The notes beneath the pieces are model-generated. The model searched no databases. It had not been told where the DNA came from and worked only from the letters and a program-made list of their open reading frames with translations. A stretch of DNA of 10,644 bases from a candidate division TA06 bacterium SM23_40. Its GTDB lineage: Bacteria > LJUI01 > SM1-40. Positions within the stretch are counted from its first letter, which is position 1. Each line of letters begins with the position of its first letter. Positions 1-10,644 of this stretch are shown piece by piece. Location of the stretch: contig LJUI01000083.1 of assembly GCA_001303705.1 (NCBI GenBank), positions 1 through 10,644 on the forward strand, written 5' to 3'. The position numbers and the translations under genes were made by a program.

Positions 1-290
1 GCTGCTCCATCTCCATCGATATCCGCCCACACGTTTGGCGCCGCGGGGCCAGCGTGCCGGGTCACAGCACCACCGTGCGGGGTCACAGCATCAGCGCCCG
101 GGGCCGCAGCATCAGCGCCCGGGGCCGCAGCATCAGCGCGAGGGGCCACAGCATCAGCGCCCGGGGCCGCAGCGAGGCCACCGCCCGGGCGCGCCGATGC
201 TCCCATTCCTATAAGGAGAGCGGCCGAACTCACCATGACGATCGCTGAAATCAGGATCATTCTCCCATCAGATCTCCACCCGCAGTTCAT
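1..290 (-). CDS. Secreted repeat protein with DxDxDG motif, N-terminal part (C-terminus beyond window edge)
   Basis: An open minus-strand frame starts with ATG at 288-290 and stays open to position 1, giving 96 residues without a stop. The start is chosen because a strong Shine-Dalgarno (AGGAGG within GAGGAGGGGAGAG) lies about 6 nt upstream. An alternative ATG at 258-260 has only a poorly spaced GGGAG. The product has a signal peptide: Arg at 6 and 10, a hydrophobic core at about 11-28 (MILISAIVMVSSAALLIG) and likely cleavage after A-S-A (31-33). Residues 40-81 are six 7-residue repeats, consensus A-A-A-P-G-A-D. They are followed by NVWADIDGDGA (86-96), whose D-I-D-G-D-G fits the DxDxDG calcium loop of dockerin, FG-GAP/VCBS and thrombospondin-3-like repeats. 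I infer an exported protein with a flexible Ala/Pro linker before a calcium-binding or propeller domain. The specific function cannot be named. All three plus-strand frames are also open here, but none has a start, RBS and signal peptide of this quality. Confidence 0.72.
   Translation of the reverse strand, partial: MNCGWRSDGRMILISAIVMVSSAALLIGMGASARPGGGLAAAPGADAVAPRADAAAPGADAAAPGADAVTPHGGAVTRHAGPAAPNVWADIDGDGA
48..173 (-). repeat. 21-bp tandem repeat, six units, encoding A-A-A-P-G-A-D heptads
   Basis: Six consecutive 21-bp units were read in the minus-strand gene. Units 1, 3 and 4 (153-173, 111-131, 90-110) are identical at nucleotide level. Unit 2 differs by a few bases (encoding AVAPRAD). 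Units 5 and 6 are diverged (AVTPHGG, AVTRHAG). The period is a multiple of three, so copy-number change keeps the reading frame. This is a coding minisatellite, most likely a length-variable linker behind the signal peptide. Confidence 0.9.
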
Positions 291-740: not shown

Positions 741-833
741 TGGCCGCCCCGCTCAGGATCGTGTAGCCGCGGTGTCCCGGCTCGCGTATCTGCGGATCCC
801 GGTCTACACTCATCTCGAGACAAGAGGTCAATC

Positions 834-1619
834 ATGTCCCACGTTATTCGCTTATGCCTCCTTCTCTCTATTGTCATTCCTGTCATTCACCTGCCTGCAG
901 ACGCCCTGGCCGATGAAGCGGACGACAGCCCGTCGGCCCGCCAGATCGTCGCGCGCGTCGACTCGGTCGCCAGAGCCGAATCGAGCGAGGGCATCATCCT
1001 CCAGACGATCACGACTACGGGCGGCGAGGAGAGAGAATTCAGAATCAGAGTCTTCACGAAAGATGGGAACGATAAGATGCTCTTCCGATACCTCGAGCCG
1101 GCCCGGGTGGAAGGCGTGAGTTTCCTCATGCTCGACGACGGAAAAGACATCTGGTCCTACTTCCCCTCCACCGACCGTGTGCGCCACCTCGCCAGTCATG
1201 TGAAGCGACAGAAGATGATGGGGAGCGACTTCTCCTACGAGGATATGGGATCATCGAGCTCGTTCGCCGCCGACTACGATGCCACGCTCGCAGGGACAGA
1301 GGATTGCGAGGGCAACGTCTGCTATCACCTCACCCTCACGCCGTACGATTCCGATTGCGCGTACAGCAGGGTCGAGATCTGGGCTGATACCTCACTCTAC
1401 GTCCCCCTGCGGGTCGACTACTACGATGATGACGGAGAGCTGCTCAAACGCCTCCTGGTCGCCGACATCCGGATCATCGATGCACACCCGACCCCGATGC
1501 ACTATGTGATGACGAATCTGCAAGATGACTCCCGGACCACGATGCGCATCGTCGAGATCGAATACGACATCGATCTACCCGATGCGCAGTTCACCACGAG
1601 CGAACTGAAGAAGCGATAG
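834..1619 (+). CDS. Outer-membrane lipoprotein-sorting (LolA-like) periplasmic protein
   Basis: The product is 261 aa. The ATG at 834 is preceded by AGAGG (823-827) with 6-nt spacing and opens directly into a signal peptide: hydrophobic residues 5-20, likely cleavage after A-L-A (24-26). In-frame sequence further upstream looks non-coding. The mature part shows the pattern of the COG2834 family with LolA/LppX fold: DIWSYFPSTDRVRHLASHV (105-123) followed by GSDFSYEDM (130-138), then an ERW-like strand set ending near VEIEYDIDLPD. Family members are periplasmic beta half-barrels that hold hydrophobic ligands or lipoproteins. They usually occur beside RND/MMPL-type exporters and an outer-membrane protein; the next gene, 7 bp downstream, is such a barrel. 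Substrate is unknown. Cys158, Cys163 and Cys175 could form a disulfide. It is not canonical LolA, which is shorter and has a different sequence. Confidence 0.85.
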   Translation: MSHVIRLCLLLSIVIPVIHLPADALADEADDSPSARQIVARVDSVARAESSEGIILQTITTTGGEEREFRIRVFTKDGNDKMLFRYLEPARVEGVSFLMLDDGKDIWSYFPSTDRVRHLASHVKRQKMMGSDFSYEDMGSSSSFAADYDATLAGTEDCEGNVCYHLTLTPYDSDCAYSRVEIWADTSLYVPLRVDYYDDDGELLKRLLVADIRIIDAHPTPMHYVMTNLQDDSRTTMRIVEIEYDIDLPDAQFTTSELKKR

Positions 1620-1626
1620 CCGGCCG

Positions 1627-2802
1627 ATGGGACTGGAATCGATGTGTCGCCTCGTCGTTACAGTTACACTTGCTACTCTCCTACTTCTGCCACGCGCCTG
1701 GGGGATCGGGCCGGAACTGAGCGGATACTACCAGTACCAGCTCAGGGCAGGAGCCATCGACAGAGAGGCCTACGTTCAGGACTACAACAGACTGCGTCTC
1801 GACATCTCCGCCCAGGCCGGCGAACGTGCATCGTTCCGCGGCGACTACGTGTACCAGACCTTCAATGGGAGGACGGCCCTCCCCCTCGACGAACTTCTGC
1901 CCCCTGCCATCTTTGAACAACTCCCCCCTGATGCGCCCTCCGCGTATGAGTTCGAGAACGAGCACTACCTGGACAACGCGTTCCTCTCCTTCTATGCGGG
2001 ACGGTTCATGATCAGAGTCGGCAAGCAGCAGCTCCCCTGGGGTACGGGATACGCCTGGAATCCGACCGACCTATTCAACGTGAAGTCTCTCGTCGAGCCC
2101 ACTTATGAGAAGCGGGGCGTCGATGCCGGAGCCATCGAAATTCCCTTCCACACTGCCGGTTCGATCCGGGCTGTCTTCGCCCCTCACGGAACGATCGAGC
2201 AAACTGCCCGCCTCCTCAGGATCGGCGAGCACTTCGGCCGGTATGACATCTCGGCAACGATCGGCCAACTCCACGAGGAGCGCCGGAACTTCCTCACAGG
2301 CACCACCTCTGCCGAGCGCAGGCGCCTGCTCGGTGGGGACTTCGCGGGAGAGCTCTTCGGCCTGGGAGTCTGGGGGGAAGGTGCATATAACGACTGGGAG
2401 CGCTCAGATGACTACGCCCAGCTCGTGCTGGGCGTCGACTACACGCTGGAGAACGGAACGTATCTCCTCGGAGAGTACTACTGGAGTGAGCGCGGACGCT
2501 TACGCAGGGAGGACTATACCGTTCAGGAGTGGCTGGAGCTCCTCTTCGGCGGGCGCAAGAGCCTGGCCCGGAACTACCTGTTTCTCTACACCTCCTATCC
2601 CCTCACTGAACTCATCGACCTCTCGGCCTACGGCGTGGGAAACCTCGATGACCGGAGCCTGGTCCTCATCCCCTCGCTGAGCTACAACATCGCTGAGAAC
2701 GTTGACCTCCTGTTCAATCTCAACCTCTTTTCGGGAGATGAAGCATCCGAATTCGGCAGCGCCGATCACCTCGGCTTCCTCCGCGTCACCGCCTACTTCT
2801 AG
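1627..2802 (+). CDS. Outer-membrane beta-barrel protein, partner of LolA-like/RND export loci
   Basis: The product is 391 aa and follows the LolA-like gene after 7 bp, so the two are almost certainly co-transcribed. Neither start has a clear Shine-Dalgarno. ATG 1627 is given here, while ATG 1642 (residue 6) would start exactly at the hydrophobic signal core and is equally plausible; cleavage is likely near A-W-G (24-26). The body alternates amphipathic strands rich in Tyr, Trp and Phe, with short acidic turns. A conserved-looking segment, GKQQLPWGTGYAWNPTDLFN (132-151), is typical of the DUF1302-like or alginate-export-like barrels found next to COG2834 proteins and MMPL/RND transporters. The chain ends LGFLRVTAYF, an outer-membrane beta-signal with terminal Phe for BAM recognition. 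It probably forms an outer-membrane channel; the substrate cannot be read from sequence. Confidence 0.75.
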   Translation: MGLESMCRLVVTVTLATLLLLPRAWGIGPELSGYYQYQLRAGAIDREAYVQDYNRLRLDISAQAGERASFRGDYVYQTFNGRTALPLDELLPPAIFEQLPPDAPSAYEFENEHYLDNAFLSFYAGRFMIRVGKQQLPWGTGYAWNPTDLFNVKSLVEPTYEKRGVDAGAIEIPFHTAGSIRAVFAPHGTIEQTARLLRIGEHFGRYDISATIGQLHEERRNFLTGTTSAERRRLLGGDFAGELFGLGVWGEGAYNDWERSDDYAQLVLGVDYTLENGTYLLGEYYWSERGRLRREDYTVQEWLELLFGGRKSLARNYLFLYTSYPLTELIDLSAYGVGNLDDRSLVLIPSLSYNIAENVDLLFNLNLFSGDEASEFGSADHLGFLRVTAYF

Positions 2803-4076: not shown

Positions 4077-4730
4077 TCAGGTGAGCAGCGAGAGCTTCGC
4101 AGTGAGGGCGGTGGCCTTATGGGTGATCACATCCCACCTCCCCGTCTCCACAGCCCACGGGTCGATCAGCCCGCTGGCCACACCGACTGTGGAGACGCCA
4201 GCCCTGAAGTAGTCCAAGATGTTGTTGAGATTGACACCTCCCGTCGCCATCAGTTCGATGAACGGGAGCGGCACCTTGAGCGCGGCGATGTGGCTCGGCC
4301 CGCCGAACGAGGCGGCGGGGAATACCTCCACAAGCCTGGCCCCGAGCGCCCAGGCGGTGACGACTTCTGTCGGAGTGGCGGCCCCGGTCGACGCCAGCAC
4401 CCCGAACTCGGTCGCGGCATCGATGATGCGTCGGTCAGTGTGGGGGGAGACGACGAACTGAGCACCTGCCTCGATCGCCCCCTTCGCCAGCTTGGCGTTC
4501 ACAACGGTTCCCGCGCCTACCAGAACCCCCTCACGTCCCGCCAGCCGACGGATCGCACCCATCGCCCCCGGCATATTGACCGCTATCTCGATAGCGGTGA
4601 TGCCGCCGGAGATCGCGGCCGTAGCGATGTGCTCAGCCTCCTCCTCGCCCGCGGCCCGGATGATGGCAATGATCCTCCGCGCCTTGAGCTCGCGCAGCAC
4701 ATCCTCAGACCGCGTCTTCACCTGATGCAT
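4077..4730 (-). CDS. KDPG/KHG aldolase family protein with altered active site
   Basis: The product is 217 aa, a typical length for the class I 2-keto-3-deoxy-6-phosphogluconate (KDPG) aldolase family (Eda, a TIM barrel). Start 4730 (MHQVKTRS) is preferred because GGGAG lies 7 nt upstream; ATGs at 4736 and 4748 are in-frame alternatives. Family landmarks: RIIAIIRA (19-26), IEIAVNMP (47-54), VGAGTVVNAK (71-80), VVSPHTD (93-99), VFPA (136-139), the phosphate-loop TGGVNLNN (163-170) and VGVASGLI (182-189). The general-base glutamate (E. coli Glu45) is present as Glu48. The Schiff-base lysine (E. coli Lys133, F-K-F-F-P-A) reads Glu135 (V-E-V-F-P-A, codon GAG at 4328-4326). The position of Arg49 reads Asn52. 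The fold is clear, but ordinary KDPG cleavage is doubtful, so I do not give the symbol eda. It has its own promoter at 4879-4907, diverges from the S55 gene and precedes trxB. Confidence 0.85.
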   Translation of the reverse strand: MHQVKTRSEDVLRELKARRIIAIIRAAGEEEAEHIATAAISGGITAIEIAVNMPGAMGAIRRLAGREGVLVGAGTVVNAKLAKGAIEAGAQFVVSPHTDRRIIDAATEFGVLASTGAATPTEVVTAWALGARLVEVFPAASFGGPSHIAALKVPLPFIELMATGGVNLNNILDYFRAGVSTVGVASGLIDPWAVETGRWDVITHKATALTAKLSLLT

Positions 4731-4907: not shown

Positions 4908-4960
4908 GGAGAAACCCACGGCCCCTCTTCCCCGACTCTGCCGACAGCCCCAAAAACCCT

Positions 4961-4989
4961 TTGACAAACCCCGACCGGCCTGCTATCCT
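4961..4989 (+). promoter_or_regulatory. Sigma70-type promoter for the S55-propeller-Asp-box operon
   Basis: TTGACA (4961-4966) is a perfect -35, with an exact 17-nt spacer and TATCCT (4984-4989, 4/6) as the -10. Transcription would start near 4996, giving a leader of about 87 nt to the ATG at 5083. This is the best promoter match in the window and probably drives the three secreted-protein genes downstream. Confidence 0.7.
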
Positions 4990-4997
4990 CTCGGGCC

Positions 4998-5043
4998 AAG
5001 GAGGGTCGGTACCTCATTGAGCGGTCAGGGCAGAAACCTGACC
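4998..5043 (+). promoter_or_regulatory. Leader with unused Shine-Dalgarno and 7-bp hairpin
   Basis: A perfect AAGGAGG (4998-5004) lies just after the predicted transcription start but has no ATG or GTG at normal distance. The nearest in-frame option is TTG 5017, 12 nt away, which would add 22 residues before the signal peptide. A perfect 7-bp hairpin follows: GGTCAGG (5023-5029), a 7-nt loop, CCTGACC (5037-5043). The hairpin has no T-run. It ends 39 nt before the ATG at 5083 and could serve mRNA stability or translational control. Confidence 0.45.
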
Positions 5044-5082
5044 CCAATCATTGTTGAAAGGCACGGCCCGAAGAAGGCACCC

Positions 5083-6945
5083 ATGAGTTCGTCCTTAGCG
5101 AAATCTGTCTCTCTCGCCCTGCTTCTGTCAATAGCACTTCCTGTTGCCGTCGTCCCAGCCCTCGAGCTCGATACCGAACGGTTCATGCCTCTGGAGGAAG
5201 TGCAGCCGGGCATGACGGGGGTTGGCCGAAGCGTATTCCAGGGGACGACGATTGAGGAGTTCGATGCCGAGATCATCAGCATCCTCAAGAACGCCTTCCC
5301 CAAGCATGACTTGATCCTCGCGCGCCTCTCGGGCGGCCCGATCGAGGAAGCGGGTGTCATCGCCGGAATGAGCGGGAGCCCTGTGTACATCGACGGCCGC
5401 ATGATCGGCGCGGTCGGCTACTCGTTCGGCCTCTTTCCCAAGGAACCGATCGCCGGTATCACCCCGATCGAACAGATGCTCGAGCTCTTCGAGCGCGAGG
5501 ATCGGTCAACCCACCCGCAACTGACGCGCCATGAGGAGACCTGGGAGGAATTGCTGGCCGGCTTTGTGTATTCCCGGGCATCGGAGCCCTCCCACACTGC
5601 CCGGTCTCTGGCCGAGACCGCCGCAATTCGTCACCCACTCCCCTCGGGCGGCGGCATCTCACCGGTCCGGACGCCACTCGTCCTCTCCGGGTTCGACGCC
5701 ACCGCCATCTCCGAGATGACCTCCCTCCTCGACAGATTCGGCTTCATACCCATCCAGGGTGGGGCGTATTCGGGCGAGGAGGCCGCCGAGATCCCGCTCG
5801 AACCCGGCGCAGTGCTCGGCGTCCAGCTCGTCGGCGGAGATGCCTCGGCATTCGCCATCGGCACACTCACCTATCGCGAGGGTGACCGTATCCTCGCTTT
5901 CGGTCATTCGATGTTCAACTCGGGCCAAGCTGCTGCGCCGATCACCAACGGATACGTACATCTGGTGCTCAAGAGCCTCTACGATTCGTACAAGATGGGC
6001 GCGCCTGTCGGGATCGTCGGCACCCTCGGCCAGGACCGCATCCCCGGCATCACCGGCAGGCTCGGCACAGAACCGGATCTCATCCCCTTCGACATCACGG
6101 TGGCATCGCCCGGCCTACCCGCCCCCGAAACGTTCCATCTCGAGATCTTCGACGACCCTATCTTCGCCCCCCAGTTCGTCAGATGGTCCCTTGCGAGTAT
6201 CGTCAGGACGACGAACAGGGGCCTGGGGAACATTACGCTCCATGCCGACACCGAGGTCGAGCTGCGGAGTGGTCAGACCCTCCACCTGGACAATATCTTC
6301 AGCGATCTGACAGCGATCGACGCCGCCGGGGAGGAACTGGGCACCTCGATCGCGCTCCTGATGCTCAATCCGCTGGAGAGAGCACAGATCGCCCGCATGC
6401 AGACGAGGGTCGCCATCGAGGAGACGCTCCGCACGGCATCGATTGAACGACTCCATCTCGAACAGACACGCGTTCATCCAGAGGAGGAGGTCGCACTCCA
6501 CATCTGGCTCAGGCCACATCTGGAGAGACCGATCCCCGTGCAGACCAGAATCGCCGTGCCCGCGGACGTCCCCGATGGGACCTATCAGCTCATCGTCTCC
6601 GATGCGGCGACGGCCCAGGCGATTGAGGTCCTCCGTGCGACCTGGCGGTTCATCCCGACCGAGTTCGACCAGCTACTTCACTTACTCGAAGATCAGGATA
6701 GAAACGACGAGATCATCCTCACTCTCATTCTGCCGCGGCCCGGCGCCGTCGTGAGAGGAGAGGAGCTGCCCCTGCTCCCGCCGTCCGTGCTCCACGTCAT
6801 GCAGCCCGAACTGGAGGCCGGCGAGGGGGGGATGACCGGTGGCAAGGTCGTCTTCCGAACCGACATCAGCACCGACTTCGTCATCACCGGAGCGAAGACG
6901 ATTCCGCTCACTGTCGATCGCTCGGAATCGTCTGTCAGGAAATGA
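5083..6945 (+). CDS. Secreted SpoIVB/S55-peptidase-like protein
   Basis: The product is 620 aa. ATG 5083 has AAGG (5074-5077) 5 nt upstream and begins a signal peptide (hydrophobic residues about 9-24, cleavage near V-P-A, 24-26); the in-frame sequence further upstream overlaps the promoter. The mature N-terminus, RFMPLEEVQPGMTGVGRSVF, and the block HDLILARLSGGPIEEAGVIAGMSGSPVYIDG (residues 75-105, in two motifs) match the SpoIVB peptidase S55 domain. Ser97 of GMSGSP is the expected nucleophile and Asp76 a plausible acid. A GH motif, LAFGHSMF, supplies His275. SpoIVB cleaves the sporulation protein SpoIVFA in Bacillus, but nothing here suggests sporulation. The C-terminal half (about 340-620) looks like beta-rich domains without a recognised name. 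It is probably periplasmic or secreted; substrate unknown. It leads the downstream propeller genes, 100 bp apart. Peptidase activity is inferred only. Confidence 0.82.
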   Translation: MSSSLAKSVSLALLLSIALPVAVVPALELDTERFMPLEEVQPGMTGVGRSVFQGTTIEEFDAEIISILKNAFPKHDLILARLSGGPIEEAGVIAGMSGSPVYIDGRMIGAVGYSFGLFPKEPIAGITPIEQMLELFEREDRSTHPQLTRHEETWEELLAGFVYSRASEPSHTARSLAETAAIRHPLPSGGGISPVRTPLVLSGFDATAISEMTSLLDRFGFIPIQGGAYSGEEAAEIPLEPGAVLGVQLVGGDASAFAIGTLTYREGDRILAFGHSMFNSGQAAAPITNGYVHLVLKSLYDSYKMGAPVGIVGTLGQDRIPGITGRLGTEPDLIPFDITVASPGLPAPETFHLEIFDDPIFAPQFVRWSLASIVRTTNRGLGNITLHADTEVELRSGQTLHLDNIFSDLTAIDAAGEELGTSIALLMLNPLERAQIARMQTRVAIEETLRTASIERLHLEQTRVHPEEEVALHIWLRPHLERPIPVQTRIAVPADVPDGTYQLIVSDAATAQAIEVLRATWRFIPTEFDQLLHLLEDQDRNDEIILTLILPRPGAVVRGEELPLLPPSVLHVMQPELEAGEGGMTGGKVVFRTDISTDFVITGAKTIPLTVDRSESSVRK

Positions 6946-7045: not shown

Positions 7046-9295
7046 ATGAGCTATCATCCGGGCGGCCATCGACTGAAGCATCTGCTCGCAGTGACCGGTT
7101 GTACAACAATCGCAGCGCTCGTGGCCATTCCCTGCTGGGCGGCAACCACGTCGCGATGGGAGGTCGGTTCCCACGATGCGCTGGCCAAGGGCACGCCGAC
7201 TAATGTTTCGATCACCGCAGACGGAAAGGCCGTTCTTGCCCCCGAGCTGAGCCTGTGGGCAGAGTCGGGCGAGCAATATATCTGGTCCCTCGCACGCGAT
7301 TCGAAGGGCGTTCTGTACGTGGGAACGGGGAATGAGGGCAAGGTATTCAAGGTGGCTCGATCCGGGTCGTGCGAGCTTCTCTTCGACTCCGACGAGATCG
7401 CTGTCACCAGCCTGGCTCTCGACCGTCAGGGCAACCTCTTCTGCGGAACGATGCCGGAAGGCCTCATCTACCGCATCACCAGAGATGGCAAAGCCTCGAT
7501 CTTCTGGGACCTTGAGGAGAAGTATGTCTGGGCTCTCGCATTCGATGACAGGGGATCTCTGTATGCCGGGACAGGGGATGAAGGGAGACTGTACCGCGTC
7601 TCACGTACCGGAGATGCCGAACCGGTCTTCGACTCCGACGACCCACACATCATGGCAGTCCTCGTCGATGAACAGGGGAGGCTCTTCGCCGGCACCGAGG
7701 GGAGCGGGCTGGTGGTCAGGATCCCCCGAGACGGGGATGCATTCGTCATGTACGATGCCTCCGAACCGGAGACACGCGCACTTGCCCTCAGTGAGGGGAC
7801 TCTGTACGTGGGGACGACCTCGGGGGCGCCGGTACCTTCCGCTCCTGCAGCGGCACCATCAGAAGTGCTGACCCCGACGCAGCCCGCTGCGTCTTCGGAC
7901 GGCGGAACGGGGACTGAGCCCCAGGCCGCCAGGCGCGAGCCAACACCGTTTGCCCCGATCACTCCCGCAGCCCCCCGGCCCGGGGTTGCAGGCGTTCTCT
8001 ATCGTATTTCGCCCGATGGAGCGGTACGGCGCCTGTGGACCTCACCCGATGTCCTCCTCTCCCTCGCCCTCGATCGCAACCGCCGCCTCGTCATCGGTAC
8101 GGGCGGAGAGGGTAGACTCTGGCGTCTCGACGATGATGACGAAGTCTCTCTGCTGGCGAAATGCGACGCACCGAACATCATCAGCCTTCTCTCTACATCT
8201 GGCGGAGACATATATATCGGCACCGGCGATGACGGCCAACTGTACCGGCTGGCCCCCGAGTACGCGGCGACCGGCACGCTGGAGTCCGAGGTGAAGGACT
8301 GTGGGTCAGTGGCAGAGTGGGGGGTGATCACCTGGGAAGCGCTCATCCCCTCGGGAACGAATGTGACCCTGGCTACGCGCACGGGCAACACAGAGAAGCC
8401 GGACGACAACTGGAGCGACTGGTCGGCCGAGCTCCGGACCCCGACGGGAAAGAGAGTCGCGAGCCCTCCCGCACGATTCCTCCAGTGGCGGGCCACGCTC
8501 ACTTCATCGGATGCGCGCAGCTCGCCGGCACTCGATCGGGTGGAGGTGGCGTACCTGCAGCAGAACCTGGCCCCACAGGTCACCTCTGTCGAGGTGACCG
8601 AGCCTGACAAAGCCGACGAGCAGACCGGCCCCGCAGCGGGGGCGGCGGCGAGGCCCGTTCCGGCCTCGATCTCCACCTCCCCTCTGCTCTCGCCCTCAGG
8701 TGCAGGCGGCCGTAATGAACGCACAGCGAGCACCCTCCCGACGGTTCAGAAGACGAGGGCCATAACCTGGCGCGCAGAAGATCCCAACGGCGACAAGCTC
8801 GCGTACGATGTCTACTTCAAGGGACTCGAAGAGAAGGAGTGGAAGCGTCTCGAGGAGGATTTCTCGGGCACGTCGCTCACGCTCGACCCGCACGCGTTTC
8901 CCGACGGCGAGTACCGCATCAAAGTCGTAGCCACGGACAGTCCGGACAATCCCCGGCCGCTCGCACTCGAAGGCCATCGGGTCTCCGACCCGTTCGCCAT
9001 CGACAATACACCGCCGACGATCGGCGGACTCGCGGTCTCCGGATCGACCGCGGGCCAGCAGAAGGCGAAGGCCGAGGCAAAGGACGCCATGAGCCGCATT
9101 CGCGGGGCGGAATACTCGTGCGATGCCGGCCCCTGGCGTGCGGTCTTCCCCGTTGACCACATATTCGATACTTCGAAAGAGCAGTTTGAGTTCGACCTCC
9201 CGGACCTCGAGCCCGGCGAACATACGCTCGTTCTCAGGGCGATCGATGGTACCGGAAATATCGGGGCATCAAAGACTGTCTTTCACACGAGGTAG
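7046..9295 (+). CDS. Secreted NHL/SMP-30-like beta-propeller with Ig/FnIII-like C-terminal domains
   Basis: The product is 749 aa. ATG 7046 has GGAG (7035-7038) 7 nt upstream. A signal peptide covers residues 1-32 (cleavage near C-W-A, 30-32). Residues about 78-405 hold propeller blades with a recurring pattern of W/T-S-L-A-x-D-x-x-G-x-L-Y-x-G-T-G-x-E-G-x-V/L-Y-R-v, at about 79-105, 120-146, 161-186, 202-226, 244-258 with 316-321, 336-361 and 378-402, consistent with six or seven blades. A Pro/Ala-rich stretch (259-313) is inserted inside the fifth blade. Residues 425-510 form a beta domain (WGVITWEALIP, NWSDWSAEL, ARFLQWRATL) often seen after such propellers. A second Pro/Ala/Ser linker spans 521-568. 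Two Ig/FnIII-like domains follow (571-652, PDGEYRIKVVATDSPDNP; 656-749). There are no catalytic residues I can point to; a binding or scaffold role is likely. Confidence 0.8.
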   Translation: MSYHPGGHRLKHLLAVTGCTTIAALVAIPCWAATTSRWEVGSHDALAKGTPTNVSITADGKAVLAPELSLWAESGEQYIWSLARDSKGVLYVGTGNEGKVFKVARSGSCELLFDSDEIAVTSLALDRQGNLFCGTMPEGLIYRITRDGKASIFWDLEEKYVWALAFDDRGSLYAGTGDEGRLYRVSRTGDAEPVFDSDDPHIMAVLVDEQGRLFAGTEGSGLVVRIPRDGDAFVMYDASEPETRALALSEGTLYVGTTSGAPVPSAPAAAPSEVLTPTQPAASSDGGTGTEPQAARREPTPFAPITPAAPRPGVAGVLYRISPDGAVRRLWTSPDVLLSLALDRNRRLVIGTGGEGRLWRLDDDDEVSLLAKCDAPNIISLLSTSGGDIYIGTGDDGQLYRLAPEYAATGTLESEVKDCGSVAEWGVITWEALIPSGTNVTLATRTGNTEKPDDNWSDWSAELRTPTGKRVASPPARFLQWRATLTSSDARSSPALDRVEVAYLQQNLAPQVTSVEVTEPDKADEQTGPAAGAAARPVPASISTSPLLSPSGAGGRNERTASTLPTVQKTRAITWRAEDPNGDKLAYDVYFKGLEEKEWKRLEEDFSGTSLTLDPHAFPDGEYRIKVVATDSPDNPRPLALEGHRVSDPFAIDNTPPTIGGLAVSGSTAGQQKAKAEAKDAMSRIRGAEYSCDAGPWRAVFPVDHIFDTSKEQFEFDLPDLEPGEHTLVLRAIDGTGNIGASKTVFHTR
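7820..7984 (+). other. Pro/Ala-rich low-complexity insert inside a propeller blade
   Basis: Residues 259-313 of the propeller protein (about 55 aa, rich in Pro, Ala, Ser, Thr and Gly) separate the outer strand TLYVGTTSG from its expected continuation GVLYRISPDG. In the other blades these two elements are only a few residues apart. The insert is in frame and is not a tandem repeat. Confidence 0.75.
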
Positions 9296-9301
9296 AGGTA
9301 G

Positions 9302-10644
9302 ATGAGGTGCAAGCAGAGGCTCCGACTCGCCGGAATCGTCGCACTCTCGGCCGCGGCCGGGACACTGGCGGCGGGCACAGTCGGGCTCGGCATGGACGCC
9401 GACAACTCGTTCCCGGTCGGAATGACCGAAGTCGGCACGACCGAGGTCCGTGCCGATCCCTCTCTTCGATTCGCTCCCCAGATCCGGCTCGACCTTCGAG
9501 CAGCCGCGGGAATGATCGAGTCGATAGCCGCAGCAGCGGACAGCGAGGGGAACCTGTACGTGGCGTGGTGTGCTGCCGACGAAGTCCCCGGGATCTGGTG
9601 TGCCCGTCTTTCGCGCGGGGAGCGATCTTTCTCAGCTCCTGTTGCGGTCAGCGATGAGGCCCGGGATCCTGCCCTCGTGATCGACGACGAGGGGCGTCTC
9701 ATTCTCGCATACGTATCGAACGACTCGCTCATCGAGGCAGTTGTCTCAGAGGACGGCGGTAATCACTTTTCCGAGCCTCTCCAGATAGAGGGGGCCCGTT
9801 CGTCGAAGAAAGAACATCCCGCGCTCGCCGCGAGCGAGGGCCAGGTGTATGTCGCATGGCGCGACCTCGTCGACGGCGAGGCGACCGTCATGGTGGCCCG
9901 CGGCTCACTCCCGAACGGGCTGTTCCAACGACCCGTTGGTCTCGGATGGAACGCTGATGAGTACGGGTCGCTCGTTGCCTCACCCCAAGGGCCTGTCCAT
10001 CTCGTCTGGGAGACAAACGGCAGAATCCGACACACCTCCTCCCGGGATGGCGGGAGGACATTCATTGCAACCCTCCTGCCCTCGGAAGGGACTGATGCCG
10101 GACAGCCTGACATCGCCCTTAGCCCAGACGGATCGCTACTTGTATGCTGGAACCGTGACGGAACGATATTCCTCTCGCGGCGCTCACCCAATTCCGCATC
10201 GTTCTCCGCGCCAGTAAGAGTGAGCGATGAAGCTCCCTCCCTGGCCGCTGGCCCGGGCCCCGCTCAGCTGGCCGCTGATGAGGAGGATCGCGTCTTTGTC
10301 GCCTGGACGAGCCTCTGGGGGACCGATCGGGACATCACGATCGACTGTTCCCTGGACGGCGGTCTCTCGTTCGGCACTGACCAGCGTCCGGGCGAGCGCT
10401 CACAGAACCTCGCTGACCAGGTCCTCCCCGCGCTCGCCGTCGGTCCCGATGGGATGGTCTATGTGGCCTGGATCGACTGCAGCCGGGCCGAAGGCCAGTG
10501 CACATACCCCACGGCCTCCTGTCATGAGATATGTCTCACCTATGCCGCATTAGGCGATACGACGCCGCCGGGAGCTCCCGCTGATCTCAGGGTCTATCAG
10601 AAGACCGATCACAGCATTGCACTCCGCTGGATCGCCCCGGGAGA
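9302..10644 (+). CDS. Secreted Asp-box (BNR/sialidase-like) propeller protein with FnIII domain, C-terminus beyond window edge
   Basis: An open frame starts with ATG 9302 and runs 447 codons to the window edge without a stop. It lies 6 bp after the stop of the propeller gene, with GAGG at 9289-9292 (9 nt) or 9295-9298 (3 nt), so it is probably translationally coupled. Residues 1-29 are a signal peptide (R-rich start, then IVALSAAAGTLAAG). The body is a beta-propeller with repeated xxVAW strands (YVAW 86-89, YVAW 183-186, FVAW 332-335, YVAW 387-390) and three Asp boxes: SEDGGNHF (149-156), SRDGGRTF (247-254) and SLDGGLSF (350-357). These are the hallmark of BNR/sialidase-fold and related propellers. 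Four cysteines (393, 400, 407, 411) cluster after the last blade. From about 420 an FnIII domain begins (TTPPGAPADLRVY...ALRWIAPG). The sialidase arginine triad and tyrosine were not identified, so enzymatic activity is not claimed. Confidence 0.8.
   Translation, partial: MRCKQRLRLAGIVALSAAAGTLAAGTVGLGMDADNSFPVGMTEVGTTEVRADPSLRFAPQIRLDLRAAAGMIESIAAAADSEGNLYVAWCAADEVPGIWCARLSRGERSFSAPVAVSDEARDPALVIDDEGRLILAYVSNDSLIEAVVSEDGGNHFSEPLQIEGARSSKKEHPALAASEGQVYVAWRDLVDGEATVMVARGSLPNGLFQRPVGLGWNADEYGSLVASPQGPVHLVWETNGRIRHTSSRDGGRTFIATLLPSEGTDAGQPDIALSPDGSLLVCWNRDGTIFLSRRSPNSASFSAPVRVSDEAPSLAAGPGPAQLAADEEDRVFVAWTSLWGTDRDITIDCSLDGGLSFGTDQRPGERSQNLADQVLPALAVGPDGMVYVAWIDCSRAEGQCTYPTASCHEICLTYAALGDTTPPGAPADLRVYQKTDHSIALRWIAPG

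What the first reader, a model, noticed from the sequence alone, without database searches (positions are those of the whole stretch)
4077..4730. KDPG-aldolase-family protein lacking the Schiff-base lysine
The landmark F-K-F-F-P-A of E. coli Eda (Lys133) reads V-E-V-F-P-A here, with codon GAG at 4328-4326. The Arg49 position reads Asn52, while the general-base Glu (Glu48) and the phosphate loops are kept. Class I KDPG/KHG aldolases need that lysine for the imine intermediate. Losing both the lysine and the pyruvate-binding arginine in an otherwise intact TIM barrel suggests a different reaction (non-imine chemistry, isomerase or lyase) or a ligand-binding role, possibly linked to trxB downstream.
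Basis: partly seen in the sequence, partly recalled or inferred. Interest (0 to 1): 0.62.

Follow-up and report, generated by a model that had tools for sequence, protein, structure and literature searches.

The report
Aldolase relative missing its catalytic lysine
This gene encodes an intact protein with the fold of a sugar-acid aldolase, but the lysine that does the chemistry in every relative checked is a glutamate here, so it probably no longer works as that aldolase; what it does instead is not shown.

Summary
Window 4077-4730 (minus strand) encodes a 217-aa protein of Pfam PF01081 (KDPG/KHG aldolase, E 9e-38), and codon 4328-4326 is GAG. This Glu135 aligns with Schiff-base Lys133 of E. 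coli Eda. The residue is Lys in all 89 relatives read plus Eda (29-46% identity, many phyla). A pattern census of about 700 genomes found no Lys-less homologue except the window. The Arg49 half of the claim is ordinary: relatives carry Thr, Ser or Asn there. The model (pLDDT 96.7) is a normal KDPG-aldolase barrel, and no lysine sits on or next to a strand end. Other changes at conserved sites include T50A, P115T, P162A and G185A. The gene is intact with normal codon composition. It is the only PF01081 gene in its ~90% complete genome, which also shows no Edd and no recognisable KDG kinase. Best reading: a lineage-specific ex-aldolase that lost class I imine chemistry when KDPG supply was lost, and survives as a binding protein or non-imine enzyme. 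It is a singleton: no relative above 46% identity was found, so a clade, selection, or a one-base AAG/GAG error cannot be tested. The trxB link has no support beyond adjacency.

The parts
4077..4730 (-). PF01081-family (KDPG/KHG aldolase-like) ORF, 217 aa
   Evidence: AlphaFold2 model pLDDT 96.7; best solved natural matches 1wa3 and 1vlw
4326..4328 (-). codon 135 GAG (Glu) at the position of Eda Schiff-base Lys133, in strand 133-136 of the model
4575..4577 (-). codon 52 AAT (Asn) at the position of Eda Arg49; Thr/Ser/Asn in relatives, not informative
4587..4589 (-). codon 48 GAG (Glu), equivalent of Eda Glu45, kept
4581..4583 (-). T50A, departure from a residue conserved in 87 of 90 relatives
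4386..4388 (-). P115T, departure from a residue conserved in 85 of 90 relatives
4236..4244 (-). Thr163-Gly164-Gly165 phosphate loop (Eda Thr161-Gly163), kept
4245..4247 (-). P162A, departure next to the TGG loop
4176..4178 (-). G185A, departure in the second phosphate loop
4879..4907 (-). promoter-like site (TTGACA, 17 nt, TAGGAT) upstream of the ORF; consensus match only

Best explanation
A naturally diverged, intact member of the KDPG/KHG-aldolase fold family that has lost class I (imine) aldolase activity. Inferred course: the lineage lost its supply of KDPG (no Edd, no recognisable KDG kinase), the single PF01081 gene was released from aldolase duty, Lys135 became Glu and several pocket residues drifted. 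The barrel, Glu48, Thr75, Pro96, the FP motif and the TGG phosphate loop were kept, so the protein most likely still binds a small phosphorylated or keto acid, either as a binding protein or with acid-base (Glu48/Glu135) chemistry that needs no imine. Shown: fold (model), loss of Lys, rarity, intact ORF, absence of Edd hits in the assembly. Inferred: loss of activity, retained ligand binding, order of events.
For: Lys in 89 of 89 relatives plus Eda, Glu only here. No Lys-less homologue in 386 genomes spread over the domain, 299 genomes of the phylum of G052 and 16 of the phylum of G111; the matching Lys pattern gave about 20 true hits in 116 genomes. Confident canonical fold. All seven lysines lie in the N-terminal tail or in helices (residues 5, 16, 80, 83, 152, 205, 212), none on or next to a strand end, so the known relocation K133Q/T161K (1fwr) is not mirrored: Thr163 is still Thr. 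Further conserved positions changed (T50A, P115T, P162A, G185A). Only PF01081 gene in the genome. No Edd-model hit at all, although that model rings in all 14 control genomes. The four PfkB kinases are two heptose kinases (one just under its model's cut-off), one ThiD and one unassigned, while Lys-bearing relatives in L073 and L017 sit directly beside KDG-kinase-like genes. Codon composition is like that of its neighbours and there is no internal stop.
Against: No relative above 46% identity was found, so purifying selection on the Lys-less form cannot be shown. The genome is about 90% complete in 189 contigs, so Edd, a KDG kinase or a second Eda could be missing from the assembly. The number of conserved sites broken (6 of 39) is no higher than in other long-branch, Lys-bearing members (4 to 10), so the rest of the pocket does not prove a functional shift. 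No activity or binding data.
Confidence: 0.55

Rival explanations
1. Neofunctionalised enzyme: the Glu135 pocket catalyses a defined non-imine reaction (for example enolisation, isomerisation, decarboxylation, or metal-assisted retro-aldol using Glu48, Glu135 and nearby His97/His147).
For: Two acids now face the same pocket by homology; the fold and the TGG loop are kept; several pocket residues changed.
Against: His97 and His147 also occur in Lys-bearing relatives (His147 in 2 of 89; the SPH motif of the Thermotoga-derived sequences). No clade shares the pocket, no genomic context suggests a reaction, and coordinates could not be inspected for metal geometry.
Confidence: 0.2
2. One-base assembly or sequencing error, or a strain-specific recent mutation: the usual codon of the lineage is AAG and the protein is an ordinary KDPG/KHG aldolase.
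For: AAG to GAG is one base; the contig comes from a fragmented assembly of unknown coverage; conserved sites otherwise look as in Lys-bearing members.
Against: Consensus errors are rare per base (general knowledge), and other conserved positions near the pocket also changed, which a single error does not explain. The genome also lacks Edd and a clear KDG kinase.
Confidence: 0.12
3. Still an aldolase, working without Lys135: imine formed by another lysine, or residual imine-free catalysis.
For: The Schiff-base lysine has been moved by design in Eda (1fwr, K133Q/T161K, title).
Against: No lysine at or next to any strand end; the position used in 1fwr is Thr here.
Confidence: 0.08
4. Decaying pseudogene caught before its first stop codon.
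For: Loss of the catalytic residue; pathway genes not found.
Against: 217 codons with no stop or frameshift, GC3 of 0.82 like its neighbours, end branch 1.04 not exceptional, 33 of 39 conserved sites kept.
Confidence: 0.05

Closest known systems
Thermotoga maritima KDPG/KHG aldolase TM0066 (1wa3, 1vlw)
   Same: Fold (TM 0.87-0.90 by query length) and 37-38% identity; SPH motif, Thr-type residue instead of Arg49, FP and TGG motifs (aligned through designed variants of it)
   Different: Has the Schiff-base Lys (K-L-F-P-G); window has Glu (V-E-V-F-P-A)
E. coli Eda (1eua, 1fq0)
   Same: Fold; equivalents of Glu45, Thr73, Pro94, Phe135-Pro136 and the TGG loop
   Different: Lys133 to Glu, Arg49 to Asn, Pro113 to Thr, Gly183 to Ala; no edd neighbour
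Eda K133Q/T161K (1fwr) and engineered PF01081 nanocage scaffolds
   Same: Lys-less position in an intact barrel (1fwr by its title; nanocages from general knowledge)
   Different: Designed, not natural; 1fwr supplies a new lysine at 161, absent here
2-dehydro-3-deoxy-6-phosphogalactonate aldolase (2v81, 2v82)
   Same: Same fold family
   Different: About 31% identity; the window scores below the NCBIfam cut-off for this subfamily (125 against 207 bits)

Membership tests
PF01081 KDPG/KHG aldolase family (by descent and fold) | Profile match above the curated cut-off | tested here: met
   130.1 bits against 27.8; TIGR01182 165.8 against 156.05
PF01081 KDPG/KHG aldolase family (by descent and fold) | Eight-stranded barrel superposing on solved members | tested here: met
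   Model pLDDT 96.7; 1vlw_B TM 0.90, rmsd 1.3
Class I KDPG/KHG aldolase (by activity) | Schiff-base lysine on strand 6 | tested here: not met
   Glu135; Lys in 89 of 89 relatives and Eda
Class I KDPG/KHG aldolase (by activity) | General acid/base Glu45 | tested here: met
   Glu48
Class I KDPG/KHG aldolase (by activity) | Phosphate loops TGG and GGS/GVGS | tested here: inconclusive
   TGG kept; second loop V-A-S with G185A
Class I KDPG/KHG aldolase (by activity) | Pyruvate-binding Arg49 | tested here: not met
   Asn52, but Thr/Ser/Asn throughout the nearest relatives, so not a defining feature of this branch
Class I KDPG/KHG aldolase (by activity) | Imine formation with pyruvate, KDPG or KHG cleavage | not testable with these tools
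   Needs purified protein
Entner-Doudoroff / KDG pathway gene | Edd or KDG kinase in the genome | tested here: not met
   No Edd-model hit; no PfkB protein passes a KDG-kinase model; genome about 90% complete, so absence is suggestive only

The most novel reading that the evidence does not exclude
A natural KDPG-aldolase barrel that has swapped imine for acid-base or metal-assisted chemistry through a Glu pair (Glu48, Glu135), representing a new reaction in the family in a bacterial lineage without close sequenced relatives.
Probability: 0.12. Interest if true: 0.65.

Novelty: new variant of a known kind. Interest (0 to 1): 0.32.

Why it matters
The Schiff-base lysine is the defining catalytic residue of this family and was invariant in every relative examined. 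A natural Lys-less member with the rest of the barrel intact would be a clean case for asking what a class I aldolase pocket can do without imine chemistry, and a caution for automatic annotation: NCBIfam's eda model would name this protein a KDPG/KHG aldolase because it passes the cut-off.

Tried and rejected
Arg49 loss as evidence: rejected, relatives lack it too. Alternative lysine at a strand end: not found. Clade of Lys-less relatives: the genome-contig scan, viral contigs and pattern censuses gave none; a first census pattern was miscounted, did not even match the window and is not used. One census hit in G410 looked aldolase-like in translation but lies in an ORF with HD/HD-GYP-like motifs (my reading). 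Conserved neighbourhood with trxB: none of the window's other proteins match the flanks of any relative. Literature: searches aimed at Lys-less or Lys133-substituted KDPG aldolases returned no report of a natural one in this open-access library; nearest texts were on engineered aldolases (PMC2431125) and a conserved-residue list for a Flavobacterium enzyme (PMC5334617). RNA families and tRNAs in the window: none.

Full report
What is there. The minus-strand ORF at 4730-4077 encodes 217 aa and matches PF01081 with E 9.2e-38 and NCBIfam TIGR01182 (eda) above its cut-off (165.8 against 156.05 bits). A promoter-like site lies about 150 bp upstream. The next gene in the same direction, starting about 150 bp downstream, is trxB (TIGR01292, 401 bits). 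The window is a whole contig (C31) of a 2.88-Mb, 189-contig, about 90% complete genome that is the only held member of its phylum.

The lysine. Aligned to E. coli Eda, Glu135 pairs with Lys133. Across 89 relatives from two searches (about 29-46% identity; Acidobacteriota, Planctomycetota, Poribacteria, Bacillota, Armatimonadota and others) the residue is Lys in all 89, and it is Lys in Eda. To look wider, a DNA pattern for T-x-x-E-(7)-G-(3)-x-[not Lys]-x-F-P was run over 386 genomes spread over the domain, 16 genomes of the phylum of G111 and 299 of the phylum of G052. It matched the window, and none of the other hits reads as an aldolase in translation (my reading; one was followed up). It covers only codons whose first base is not A, so Ile, Met, Thr, Asn and part of Ser and Arg would be missed. 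The same pattern with Lys gave about 20 true hits in 116 of these genomes, so roughly 65 Lys-bearing homologues are expected in the 386. Lys loss is therefore rare, and no second case was found.

Arg49. Relatives carry Thr 76, Ser 7, Asn 6, and sequences designed from the Thermotoga aldolase carry Thr (alignments). This part of the finding is ordinary.

Other pocket changes. Of 39 positions conserved in at least 90% of relatives the window breaks six: T50A, L77V, P115T, K135E, P162A, G185A. Long-branch members that keep Lys break 4 to 10, so the number is not unusual; K135E is the one that no other breaks. The tree puts the window on an end branch of 1.04, among the longer but not the longest, and its pairing with L066 is a possible long-branch artefact.

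Structure. AlphaFold2 on an alignment of 81 sequences gives pLDDT 96.7; Foldseek's best 50 matches are KDPG/KHG-type aldolases and designs made from them. Position 135 is in strand 6. The lysines at 5, 16, 80, 83, 152, 205 and 212 lie in the N-terminal tail or in helices, none at a strand end. The engineered relocation of the lysine in Eda (1fwr, K133Q/T161K) uses a position that is Thr here.

Genome context. The gene is the only PF01081 member. The Edd model finds nothing, although it rings in all 14 control genomes, presumably through related dehydratases. Of four PfkB-family proteins, two are heptose-kinase-like (one 362.2 bits over its 345 cut-off, one 321.5 just under), one is ThiD, one is unassigned with weak similarity to several sugar kinases. 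In contrast, Lys-bearing relatives in L073 and L017 lie beside KDG-kinase-like genes (these kinases also score below the curated cut-offs). With about 10% of the genome missing, absence is suggestive, not proven. Nothing in the window points to sugar-acid metabolism, and none of its other proteins matched the flanks held for relatives.

Interpretation. The most economical account is loss of class I aldolase chemistry in a lineage without a KDPG supply, with the fold and part of the ligand site kept. Whether the protein now has another reaction, only binds a ligand, or has a recently mutated or miscalled codon cannot be decided from one sequence. The intact frame and normal codon composition argue against an old pseudogene. 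The additional pocket changes argue mildly against a lone base error.

Membership. By descent and fold it is a PF01081 member (tested, met). By activity it should not be filed as a class I KDPG/KHG aldolase, since the defining lysine was tested and is absent; activity itself was not testable.

Noticed in passing
window 50-173: Array of about six 21-bp repeats (86% matches) at the contig start, inside open frames that would encode seven-residue Ala/Pro/Gly-rich repeats.
   Followed up: no
window 4924-6942 (+): Divergent gene with a weak SpoIVB peptidase S55 match (PF05580, 35.7 bits) and a likely signal peptide further in than the first start.
   Followed up: no
window 795-2799 (+): LolA-like outer-membrane lipoprotein-sorting protein (PF17131) followed by a 391-aa protein without a Pfam or NCBIfam match, possibly an outer-membrane partner.
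   Followed up: no
window 7046-10642 (+): A 749-aa protein with two-component-regulator propeller repeats (PF07494) and a 447-aa open-ended neighbour with no Pfam match.
   Followed up: no
own genome G000: No hit at all to the Edd model, which also rings in all 14 control genomes (probably through related dehydratases), so IlvD may be missing too.
   Followed up: partly
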